A stretch of 64,000 nucleotides of DNA, taken from an uncultured Solirubrobacteraceae bacterium (GTDB taxonomy: Bacteria > Actinomycetota > Thermoleophilia > Solirubrobacterales > Solirubrobacteraceae). The notes beneath the pieces were generated by a model. The model saw only the letters and a list, made by a program, of their open reading frames with translations. It did no database searches and had not been told where the DNA came from. The stretch covers positions 1 to 64,000 of the forward strand of contig CADCVQ010000081.1 of the NCBI GenBank assembly GCA_902806175.1, given 5' to 3'. Every line of letters begins with the position of its first letter. The first letter of the stretch is position 1. The position numbers and the translations under genes were made by a program. This document shows, piece by piece, positions 3-23,423 of this stretch.

Positions 3-491
3 GCGCTGCGCGCCTTCTCGCAGGGCCTCGCGCACACCGTGCTCGCCGTCCCGATCGCGCAGGAGCGGGCGACGATGCACCTCGACACCATCTGCACGAT
101 GGTCGACCGCGACGCCGTCGTGATGTTCCCGGCGGTCGCCGACACCCTCTCGGCCTGCACCGTCCTGCCGGCCGATGACGGCGGCCTGCGGGTGTCCGAG
201 CCGGCCCCGTTCCTCGAGGCGGCTGCCGCCGCGATGGGGCTGGACCGGCTGCGGACCATCGACACCGGTCTGGACCCCGTGACGGCCCAGCGCGAGCAGT
301 GGGACGACGGCAACAACCTCGTCTGCCTCGAGCCCGGCGTCGTGGTGGCCTACGAACGCAACGTCGACACCAACACGCGGCTGCGCAAGGAGGGCATCGA
401 GGTCATCACCATCGAGGGCTTCGAGCTGGGCCGCGGCCGCGGCGGCTCGCACTGCATGACCTGCCCGATCGAGCGCGACCCGGCCTACTAG
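3..491 (+). CDS. arcA: Arginine deiminase, C-terminal part (5' end outside window)
   Basis: Arginine deiminase converts arginine to citrulline and ammonia, the first step of the cytosolic arginine deiminase pathway. Only the last 162 residues are visible; the reading frame is open from the window edge. Seen: the substrate-site stretch HLDT near the start, the late GNN segment, and a C-terminal GGSHCMTCP loop carrying the catalytic cysteine of the guanidino-modifying enzyme family. The next gene, ornithine carbamoyltransferase, starts 9 nt after this stop, which is the usual arcA-arcB order and implies one transcript. The family call is secure; the N-terminal half, with the other catalytic residues, cannot be checked here. 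Confidence 0.93.
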
Positions 492-499
492 GAAAACCG

Positions 500-1504
500 A
501 TGTACAACCTGCGCAACCGCAGCTTCCTCAAGGAGACCGACTTCTCGACCCAGGAGCTCGAGCACCTGCTCGAGCTCGCGCGGACACTCAAGCTGGCCAA
601 GTACGCCGGCACCGAGACGCCGTCCCTGCGCGGCAAGGAGATCGCGCTCATCTTCGAGAAGACCTCGACGCGCACGCGCGCGGCGTTCGAGGTCGCAGCC
701 TTCGACCAGGGCGCCCACGTGACCTACCTCGACCCCGCGGGCTCGCAGATCGGCCACAAGGAGTCGATCGCCGACACGGCGCGCGTGCTCGGCCGGCTCT
801 TCGACGCCATCGAGTTCCGCGGCGCGGCGCACGCCACGATCGAGGAGCTGGCCGCTCATGCCGGCGTCCCGGTCTACAACGGCCTCACCGACGAGTGGCA
901 CCCCACCCAGATGCTGGCCGACTTCCTGACCATGCACGAGGCCGGCCGCAAGCCCTACCAGGAGCTCGCCTACTGCTACATGGGCGACGCCCGCAGCAAC
1001 ATGGGCCGCTCGCTGCTGGTGATGGGCGCGATCATGGGCAGCGACGTGCGCATCTGCGCGCCCGCGGCGCTGCACCCACCGGCGGACGTGGTGGCGGTCG
1101 CGCGCGAGCGCGCCACGCAAAGCGGGGCTCGAGTCACGCTGACCGAGGACCCCGACGAAGCGCTGCCCGGCGCCGACTTCGTGCACACCGACGTCTGGGT
1201 CTCGCTGGGCGAGAGCAAGGACGTCTGGCGCGAGCGCGTCGAGCTGCTCTCGCCCTACCAGGTCAACCGCGCCGCGCTGCAAAGAACCCGCAACCCCCAG
1301 GTCCGCTTCATGCACTGCCTGCCCGCCTTTCACGACACGAACACGGTGGTCGGGCGCGAGGTGATCGAGCAGACCGGCATGTCCGACGGGCTCGAGGTCA
1401 CCAACGAAGTATTCGAATCCCCCGCCAGCATCGTCTTCGACCAAGCCGAGAACCGCCTGCACACCATCAAGGCCGTGCTCGTCGCCACGATCGGAGGCGG
1501 GTGA
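500..1504 (+). CDS. arcB: Ornithine carbamoyltransferase, catabolic type by context
   Basis: The enzyme interconverts citrulline plus phosphate and ornithine plus carbamoyl phosphate. The 334-residue length is normal for the family. Seen: the carbamoyl-phosphate motif STRTR at residues 56-60, HPTQ in the middle, and the ornithine/catalytic motif HCLP at about residue 272 followed by AFHD. I chose the ATG at 500 because the alignable N-terminus ([10 protein letters not shown]) begins there; the frame is open further upstream but overlaps arcA. Position directly behind arcA suggests a catabolic role giving carbamoyl phosphate for ATP. No carbamate kinase gene (arcC) follows; a tRNA gene on the other strand comes next. 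An anabolic argF role cannot be excluded from sequence alone. Confidence 0.95.
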
Positions 1505-22084: not shown

Positions 22085-22158
22085 TGGGCGGTCGCGGGCT
22101 CGAACCGCGGACCTCCTGCTTGTAAGGCAGGCGCTCTGACCAGCTGAGCTAACCGCCC
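22085..22158 (-). tRNA. tRNA-Val (anticodon TAC)
   Basis: A 74-nt cloverleaf on the minus strand. Acceptor GGGCGGT pairs perfectly with ACCGCCC. Anticodon stem CCTGC/GCAGG closes loop CTTACAA, giving TAC. The T arm contains GGTTCGAGCC. Discriminator A, no encoded CCA. Confidence 0.96.
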
Positions 22159-22266: not shown

Positions 22267-22576
22267 TGGGCCGCCTGGGACTCGAACCCAGAACCTAGGG
22301 ATTAACCTGCCGCACCGGCTCTCACCGGCCGCCGTGGCGTTGCGGTCTGGACCATCTCTTCACCCTCGCCGGTCCGCGTTAGGGTGGGCAGCGTATGGCC
22401 TCTGAGGGCTCTCCCTTGCGGGGTTGCCTGCTGATTGCCCAATCCTGAGGATTGTCACCGCGATGGGTACCTCAGGCTCTCAGGGGGTCCCAGCAAACAG
22501 CTGCCGACAAACCAGCGGTCTCCCGACTGGCGCTCCGTACCGAAGTCCCTTGCTCTACCGATTGAGCTAACGGCCC
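22267..22576 (-). tRNA. tRNA-Lys (anticodon TTT), interrupted by a group I intron
   Basis: Exon 1 is 22576-22543 (34 nt) and exon 2 is 22305-22267 (39 nt), together a 73-nt tRNA. The acceptor GGGCCGT pairs with GCGGCCC (one G-T). The D arm is GCTC/GAGC and the T arm CTGGGTTCGAGTCCCAG. Across the intron, AGGGA pairs with TCCCT and the joined loop is CTTTTAA, anticodon TTT. Discriminator A and the GGGCCGTTAGCTC opening are typical of tRNA-Lys. The break falls between positions 34 and 35. A splice shift by one base would give GTT (Asn), but discriminator and acceptor argue for Lys. Confidence 0.85.
22306..22542 (-). ncRNA. Group I self-splicing intron (237 nt) in tRNA-Lys
   Basis: The intron follows a U and ends in G, as group I introns do. 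Read on the minus strand: a GAG that can pair with the exon end CUU (P1, 22535-22533); a P2 hairpin, CCAG...CTGG, with a GAGA tetraloop; an R-like element CTCAGAGGCCA (22406-22396); an ACCCT/AGGGT stem (P8); and an S-like element AAGAGATGGTCC (22360-22349). GGCCA pairs with TGGTC to form P7. The ACCCTAACG...CGAGGGTGAAGAG segment closely resembles the cyanobacterial tRNA-Leu introns of the IC3 class, as I recall them. It has no internal reading frame of note. Confidence 0.85.
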
Positions 22577-22616: not shown

Positions 22617-23324
22617 TCAGCCGAGCCAACGCGGCTCGTCGAAACCTGCGTACTCCTGGATCGCGCCGTAGATGTGCTGCAGCACGTGCGTGCTGCCGAG
22701 CCGCAGCGAGCAGACGCCGTAGATCAGGCGGTTCTTCGCCCGTCCGCTGCTCGACGTGGGGGTGTGGTCGATCATGTGCTTGCGCAGGACGGAGCGCGGA
22801 AGCGCGAGCCCGTCGAGCCAGTACGCCTCGATCTCCGCGATCGAGAGGCCGTTGTTCGTGTACACGTTCAGCGCGATGCGCAGGCGCGCGTCCTCGACGC
22901 CGAGGCAGTCGCGTAGGAAGCCGCGGAAGAGGCGCACCATCGGCAAGTCGGAGTTGGCGAAGTCGACGACGTTGCGTCCCTTGCCGCCTTCCGCCCAGTA
23001 GAGCATGCAGCCCTGCAGGTGCAGCGGGTCGCCGCCGGCGCGCGCCCGTGCGCGCCCCTCCTCCTGATAGGCCGCGCGCTTGGCGCGACAAGCCGCCGAC
23101 CAGCTTGCGGCGCGGCGGGCGACGACCGCCGGATTCTGCGGACCGGCCGGTCCGCGCAGGTTGTGCGCGCGCTGCTCGGCGGTCAGCTCGATGTCCCGCG
23201 TCCACGCATGAACGCTGCCTGGCGACACACCGAGGAGCGCGGCGATGCGCTTGTGCGGCCAGCCCTCCTGGCGCAGGGCACGCGCCTGAGCGCGTTCGAC
23301 GGCTTTGACCCGCATCGAACGCAT
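22617..23324 (-). CDS. HTH protein with homing-endonuclease-like C-terminal region
   Basis: A 235-residue protein lying between tRNA-Glu and the intron-bearing tRNA-Lys on the same strand. Residues 8-45 form a helix-turn-helix (ALRQEGWPHKRIAALLGVS). Residues about 105-210 resemble the LAGLIDADG endonuclease fold: GCMLYWAEGGKGR, then FANSDLPMVRLFRGFLRDC, which is the NSD-x-x-M-x-x-x-F pattern common in that superfamily. Only one clear acidic helix is seen, so it may act as a dimer or be a regulator. No ribosome site is obvious and it may be read with the tRNAs. A role in spreading or housing the intron is inference; related HTH proteins near tRNAs are usually listed as hypothetical. Confidence 0.65.
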   Translation of the reverse strand: MRSMRVKAVERAQARALRQEGWPHKRIAALLGVSPGSVHAWTRDIELTAEQRAHNLRGPAGPQNPAVVARRAASWSAACRAKRAAYQEEGRARARAGGDPLHLQGCMLYWAEGGKGRNVVDFANSDLPMVRLFRGFLRDCLGVEDARLRIALNVYTNNGLSIAEIEAYWLDGLALPRSVLRKHMIDHTPTSSSGRAKNRLIYGVCSLRLGSTHVLQHIYGAIQEYAGFDEPRWLG

Positions 23325-23351
23325 GTTCGCGTAGACGCAGGACGGATGAAG

Positions 23352-23423
23352 TACCCCCAGGGAGAATCGAACTCCCGCTTCGGCCGTGAAAGGGCCGCGT
23401 GCTGACCGCTACACCATGGGGGC
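23352..23423 (-). tRNA. tRNA-Glu (anticodon TTC)
   Basis: A 72-nt cloverleaf on the minus strand. Acceptor GCCCCCA pairs with TGGGGGT, leaving a G-T at the first pair. Anticodon stem CGGCC/GGCCG closes loop CTTTCAC, giving TTC. T arm GGGAGTTCGATTCTCCC. No CCA encoded. Confidence 0.94.

What the first reader, a model, noticed from the sequence alone, without database searches (positions are those of the whole stretch)
22267..22576. Group I intron splitting a tRNA-Lys(UUU) gene
Two exons of 34 and 39 nt join to a perfect tRNA-Lys with loop CTTTTAA, and the 237-nt insert shows group I hallmarks: a terminal G, a U at the 5' splice site, P7 between GGCCA and TGGTC, an ACCCT/AGGGT stem, and an S-like AAGAGATGGTCC. 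The site, between positions 34 and 35, is the one used by cyanobacterial tRNA-Leu introns. I recall bacterial tRNA introns mainly in Leu, Arg, fMet and Ile tRNAs, so a Lys host looks unusual. Standard bacterial tRNA searches may miss it, making the genome seem to lack tRNA-Lys(UUU).
Basis: partly seen in the sequence, partly recalled or inferred. Interest (0 to 1): 0.82.

Follow-up and report, generated by a model that had tools for sequence, protein, structure and literature searches.

The report
Group I intron in tRNA-Lys(UUU)
In this soil-type actinobacterium and 12 sampled relatives, the only gene found for the tRNA that reads the lysine codon AAA is interrupted by a probable self-splicing RNA intron, and close relatives of that intron sit in the same tRNA gene on contigs classed as viral, one of them a tRNA-rich phage-like contig, which hints at how such introns spread.

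Summary
Confirmed. On the minus strand, tRNA-Lys(UUU) exons 22543-22576 and 22267-22305 flank a 237-nt insert that matches Rfam Intron_gpI (44.2 bits, E 4.9e-10; just under the curated 50-bit cut-off). The insert has a U.G-closed P1, P2-P9, a P7 with the guanosine-site G-C pair, and a terminal G. Thirteen homologues support the structure: 98.8% of pairs kept and 13 pairs with changes on both sides, above all 500 shuffles. The order's 232 genomes hold 13 carriers, including cultured Svornostia abyssi. None of the 13 has an intact tRNA-Lys(UUU), against 33 of 35 non-carriers checked with the same loose pattern. The window genome otherwise has a full tRNA set, so AAA decoding should depend on splicing. 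Carriage is patchy and weakly discordant with the host tree. The closest outside relatives are introns in tRNA-Lys(UUU) on two contigs classed as viral (71% and about 65% identical); they form one clade with the 13 (support 100/99). A third viral contig carries a different intron at the same site. I read this as a bona fide group I intron, a new host tRNA and lineage for a known kind, probably mobile between phage and chromosome. Splicing itself is inferred, not shown.

The parts
22543..22576 (-). 5' exon of tRNA-Lys(UUU), tRNA positions 1-34, ends ...GGACUU
22306..22542 (-). group I intron, 237 nt, between tRNA positions 34 and 35; no room for an endonuclease gene
   Evidence: Rfam RF00028; covariation; homologues
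22267..22305 (-). 3' exon of tRNA-Lys(UUU), tRNA positions 35-73, starts UUAAUCC
22533..22545 (-). P1: exon CUU + intron CG pair with CGGAG; U34.G wobble at the 5' splice site
   Evidence: invariant in all 13 homologues
22511..22531 (-). P2 hairpin with GNRA loop (GAGA/GAAA)
22500..22505 (-). P3 5' strand GGCAGC (A-U to G-C double change in 6 of 13 homologues)
22387..22392 (-). P3 3' strand GCUGCC
22396..22400 (-). P7 5' strand GGCCA, carries the G of the guanosine-binding G-C pair
22350..22354 (-). P7 3' strand UGGUC
22362..22385 (-). P8 hairpin ACCCU/AGGGU (A-U, G-U and G-C forms among homologues)
22314..22329 (-). P9 hairpin GCCGGU-GAGA-GCCGGU with GNRA loop
22306..22306 (-). terminal (omega) G of the intron
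   Evidence: invariant in the 13 aligned homologues
22085..22158 (-). tRNA-Val(UAC), downstream neighbour
23351..23423 (-). tRNA-Glu(UUC), upstream neighbour; it also lies near the intact tRNA-Lys(UUU) of many non-carriers

Best explanation
A bacterial group I intron interrupts the sole tRNA-Lys(UUU) gene between anticodon positions 34 and 35. The pre-tRNA folds so that exon CUU pairs with the intron's guide (P1, U34.G). Free guanosine bound in P7 attacks after U34; the freed U34 attacks after the terminal G; the exons join as tRNA-Lys(UUU), which should be needed to read AAA because the other tRNA-Lys has a CUU anticodon. The intron has no endonuclease gene. It persists because the tRNA is needed, and it spreads laterally, probably with phage- or element-borne tRNA-Lys genes, followed by recombination or reverse splicing. 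Shown by sequence: structure, site, conservation, the sole-copy state, patchiness, sister introns on contigs classed as viral. Inferred: self-splicing, guanosine use, the phage route. The confidence given is for the group I intron in tRNA-Lys(UUU) that splices; the lateral, phage-linked route alone I put at about 0.5.
For: Rfam RF00028 E 4.9e-10. Structure counted on 13 homologues: 98.8% of cells paired (shuffled mean 96.0, slid registers 51% or less), 13 pairs and 32 cells with both sides changed, 0 of 500 shuffles as high. P1 with U.G at the splice site invariant. Thirteen carriers in the order; 0 of 13 has an intact tRNA-Lys(UUU), 33 of 35 other genomes tested match the same loose pattern. 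Own genome has a full tRNA set with Lys(CUU) and Asn(GUU) intact and no other Lys(UUU). Exon sequences still fold as tRNA, with paired double changes in the acceptor, anticodon and T stems, so the product is under selection. Sister introns in tRNA-Lys(UUU) on viral-classed contigs L319 (71% identical, on a contig with at least 18 further tRNA genes, RF00028 56.5 bits) and L286 (about 65%), in one clade with the 13 at 100/99.
Against: No RNA evidence. The Rfam score is under the curated cut-off. The lateral route is weak: the intron tree is poorly resolved (no starred branch among the 13), the discordance of the two f2 introns has p 0.03 and rests on MAGs whose bins may be wrong, and no phage infecting Solirubrobacterales is identified. 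L286 lies beside an integrase and a DUF1501 gene, so that tRNA may be chromosomal rather than viral.
Confidence: 0.93

Rival explanations
1. The host is tRNA-Asn(GUU): the intron starts one nucleotide earlier and leaves its last G as position 34.
For: ARAGORN in intron mode reports exactly this for the window and for several homologues.
Against: It puts a U-A pair, not U.G, at the splice site; L008 would then end in U, not G; the genome has a separate tRNA-Asn(GUU) and no other tRNA-Lys(UUU); empty-site relatives have tRNA-Lys(UUU) in the same neighbourhood.
Confidence: 0.02
2. The intron is a decayed, non-splicing remnant, and AAA is read some other way.
For: Rfam score below the gathering cut-off; AAA is rare (4 AAA against 80 AAG in nine window ORFs).
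Against: Core and pairing are under strong constraint in 13 genomes, with paired double changes; exons are intact; carriers have no other copy; a CUU anticodon is not expected to read AAA (general knowledge).
Confidence: 0.03
3. On the history only: the family is ancestral in Solirubrobacterales, passed down vertically and lost many times; the viral copies were picked up from hosts.
For: Same site in all 13; close relatives usually share it (6 of 7 in the genus, 3 of 3 in g11); the 13 form one group, though weakly (69/86).
Against: At least 4-5 changes on the RpoB tree; congeners G084 and G088 differ more from each other (84.4%) than G084 does from other-family introns (91%) although RpoB of G084 is the most distant; one-clade test p 0.03.
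Confidence: 0.35

Closest known systems
Cyanobacterial and plastid tRNA-Leu(UAA) group I intron
   Same: Group I intron in an anticodon loop; from my own knowledge the same 34/35 site after CUU. Viral contigs L268 and L273 found here carry tRNA-Leu(UAA) introns at that site sharing the P8 and J8/7-P7 core.
   Different: Different host tRNA (Lys-UUU), host lineage and intron subfamily; no bacterial chromosomal Leu intron was fetched for direct comparison.
Bacterial tRNA-Ile(CAU), tRNA-Arg and tRNA-fMet group I introns (Azoarcus, Agrobacterium, Synechocystis; tRNAscan-SE 2.0 paper PMC8450103 for Ile2 and fMet)
   Same: Small group I introns in anticodon loops that standard tRNA finders miss (PMC8450103).
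   Different: Other tRNAs and sites; an actinobacterial CAU-tRNA intron (L118) is only about 50-56% identical and falls outside the clade.
Reported 'group I intron' in tRNA-Lys(CUU) of Gloeocapsa sp. PCC 73106 (PMC5733544)
   Same: Claims a group I intron in a bacterial tRNA-Lys anticodon loop.
   Different: The reported inserts are 22-49 nt, far too short to hold a group I core, and the anticodon is CUU; I do not regard it as a precedent.
Group I introns in tRNA-Lys(UUU) on viral contigs (L319, L286, L280; found here, not from the literature)
   Same: Intron in tRNA-Lys(UUU); L286 and L280 at 34/35, L319 at 35/36; L319 and L286 share diagnostic core blocks with the window.
   Different: About 57-71% identical; on viral-classed contigs rather than an identified bacterial chromosome.

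Membership tests
Group I intron | Covariance match to the family (Rfam RF00028) | tested here: met
   44.2 bits, E 4.9e-10, full model 1-253, but under the curated 50-bit cut-off; homologue L319 passes it at 56.5 bits
Group I intron | P1 with U.G at the 5' splice site | tested here: met
   U34.G invariant in 13 homologues
Group I intron | P3-P7 pseudoknotted core with guanosine-binding G-C in P7 | tested here: met
   P3 6 pairs, one with double changes; P7 5 pairs invariant, G-C present
Group I intron | Terminal (omega) G | tested here: met
   present at 22306 and in the 13 aligned homologues
Group I intron | Self-splicing with exogenous guanosine | not testable with these tools
   needs an in vitro transcript
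Bacterial tRNA anticodon-loop group I intron | Exons join to a functional tRNA | tested here: met
   spliced sequence is tRNA-Lys(ttt); double changes in acceptor, anticodon and T stems; function itself not assayed
Bacterial tRNA anticodon-loop group I intron | Empty site in relatives | tested here: met
   intact tRNA-Lys(UUU) in G055, G006 and others, exon parts 1-34 and 35-73 contiguous in G055
IC3 subgroup | Subgroup-specific core | not tested
   GNRA loops on P2 and P9 are compatible; no subgroup models were available

The most novel reading that the evidence does not exclude
Phage-carried tRNA-Lys(UUU) genes are the reservoir and vehicle of a mobile group I intron lineage that repeatedly replaces the only chromosomal tRNA-Lys(UUU) of soil actinobacteria and other bacteria, making the host's decoding of AAA depend on a phage-derived ribozyme.
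Probability: 0.3. Interest if true: 0.75.

Novelty: new member of a known kind. Interest (0 to 1): 0.5.

Why it matters
It adds a new tRNA host (Lys-UUU) and a lineage (Thermoleophilia) to bacterial tRNA introns, explains why carrier genomes look as if they lack tRNA-Lys(UUU), shows a tRNA presumed essential resting on a ribozyme in 13 genomes including a cultured strain, and provides sister introns on viral-classed contigs, so that the old question of how tRNA introns spread can be tested directly.

Tried and rejected
An intron-derived match in G006 (C1:46700) lies in unrelated sequence without an intron. The idea that carriers share a special target sequence GGACUU|UUAAUCC was dropped: many non-carriers also have it. 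A weaker Rfam search found no hidden tRNA intron in 39 other genomes. Named phages matched mostly through short tRNA pieces, plasmids not at all. Svornostia annotation could not be read. Viral hits L287-L291 were not recognised as tRNA-Lys introns; L365 shows no intron features and no tRNA. The HTH ORF between tRNA-Glu and tRNA-Lys (22617-23324) was considered as a homing enzyme: only HTH matches, and among the loci compared only G004 has a relative there.

Full report
Observation. The minus strand at 22267-22576 reads as a 34-nt and a 39-nt tRNA half around 237 nt. Joined, the halves are a complete tRNA-Lys with anticodon UUU. Standard runs of ARAGORN and Rfam at gathering thresholds do not list it. 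At E-value thresholds Rfam's Intron_gpI covers 22335-22553, full length, 44.2 bits, E 4.9e-10; it is the only match to that family in the genome.

Splice sites. Read as Lys, the intron starts CGGUACGGAG and ends GGCAGG, with P1 formed by exon C32-U33-U34 plus intron CG against CGGAG and a U34.G pair at the cut. ARAGORN's intron mode shifts the cut by one and calls tRNA-Asn. The homologue L008 ends ACUG before UUAAUCC, so the Asn reading would break the terminal G, and the genome already has an intact tRNA-Asn. The Lys reading is the sound one.

Structure. Thirteen homologues were aligned. With a hand-assigned group I structure (P1-P9, P7 as a pseudoknot), 98.8% of cells pair, 13 pairs show changes on both sides, and no shuffle of 500 reaches these values; sliding one strand by 1-3 columns drops pairing to 35-51%. 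Double changes fall in P2, P3, P5a, P6a and P8 and in the acceptor, anticodon and T stems, so both the ribozyme and the tRNA product look maintained. P1, P4, P7 and P9 are invariant and so are not tested by covariation.

Genome context. The order is Solirubrobacterales: carrier G036 matches the record of Svornostia abyssi CP088295.1. The window genome (97% complete) has a full set of tRNA anticodons, with Lys(CUU) and without any other Lys(UUU). Under a loose pattern none of 13 carriers has an intact Lys(UUU), while 33 of 35 other genomes tested match. AAA is rare here (4 against 80 AAG in nine window ORFs), but the tRNA should still be needed.

Distribution. In the order, 13 of 232 genomes carry it; the other group I introns found in the order and class lie in 23S rRNA. 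Elsewhere in the phylum, tRNA introns seen lie in tRNA-Asn(GUU) between 35 and 36 and in CAU tRNAs (my reading of the exon ends). Carriage needs 4-5 changes on an RpoB tree, and the two congeneric carriers G084 and G088 have introns that do not group (p 0.03); G084's intron is 91% like the window's although its RpoB is only 81% like it. MAG binning could mislead here.

Relatives on viral contigs. Scans of IMG/VR gave three contigs with an interrupted tRNA-Lys(UUU). L319 (74 kb, at least 18 further tRNA genes in 6.5 kb, two HNH endonuclease ORFs) has a 249-nt intron between 35 and 36, 71% identical to the window's. L286 (46 kb) has a 299-nt intron at 34/35, 64-65% identical, beside an integrase and a DUF1501 gene, so it may be a chromosomal tRNA used as an integration site. 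L280 (85 kb) has a 196-nt intron at 34/35 that is about 57% like the window's and about 80% like an intron in the same contig's tRNA-Met. The 13, L319 and L286 form a clade at 100/99 apart from L280 and the actinobacterial Asn and CAU introns, though the tree tool warns of long branches. A further viral contig, L364, shows the same core blocks with no tRNA found nearby.

Mechanism and status. Shown: sequence, structure, site, sole-copy state, patchiness, sister introns on viral-classed contigs. Inferred from group I biochemistry: two-step splicing with guanosine. Inferred with less confidence: transfer by phage or element. Literature in the held library did not yield a credible earlier tRNA-Lys group I intron; the one claim (PMC5733544) concerns inserts of 22-49 nt. 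The library lacks most subscription journals, so priority is not established.

Noticed in passing
loci L074-L078, L081, L083, L091, L092, L094-L105 (order and class): Group I introns in or beside 23S rRNA genes of Thermoleophilia, some genomes with two or three.
   Followed up: partly
L106-L117, L130 (phylum): Group I introns that read as splitting tRNA-Asn(GUU) between positions 35 and 36; ARAGORN names several of them wrongly.
   Followed up: partly
L118, L123: Group I introns in CAU-anticodon tRNAs between 36 and 37 in the same phylum.
   Followed up: partly
L280: Viral contig with 16 standard tRNA genes plus group I introns in tRNA-Lys(UUU) and tRNA-Met, about 80% alike, suggesting movement between tRNA genes of one phage.
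   Followed up: partly
L268, L271, L273, L275: Viral contigs with introns read as lying in tRNA-Leu genes; L268 and L273 (read in full) split Leu(UAA) at 34/35 and carry long, probably coding inserts.
   Followed up: partly
L364:7207-7225: Core of a related group I intron on a viral contig with no tRNA nearby; host gene not identified.
   Followed up: no
window 22617-23324 minus: 235-aa ORF with an HTH domain between tRNA-Glu and tRNA-Lys; a 47% identical one lies there in G004 only, among the loci compared.
   Followed up: partly
window 427-522 minus: ARAGORN calls a tRNA-Pyl(CUA); probably a false positive, not checked.
   Followed up: no
L072 (CAMCUD010000009.1): Record titled Bifidobacterium breve MAG holds the Solirubrobacterales tRNA-Lys intron; the title looks wrong.
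   Followed up: partly
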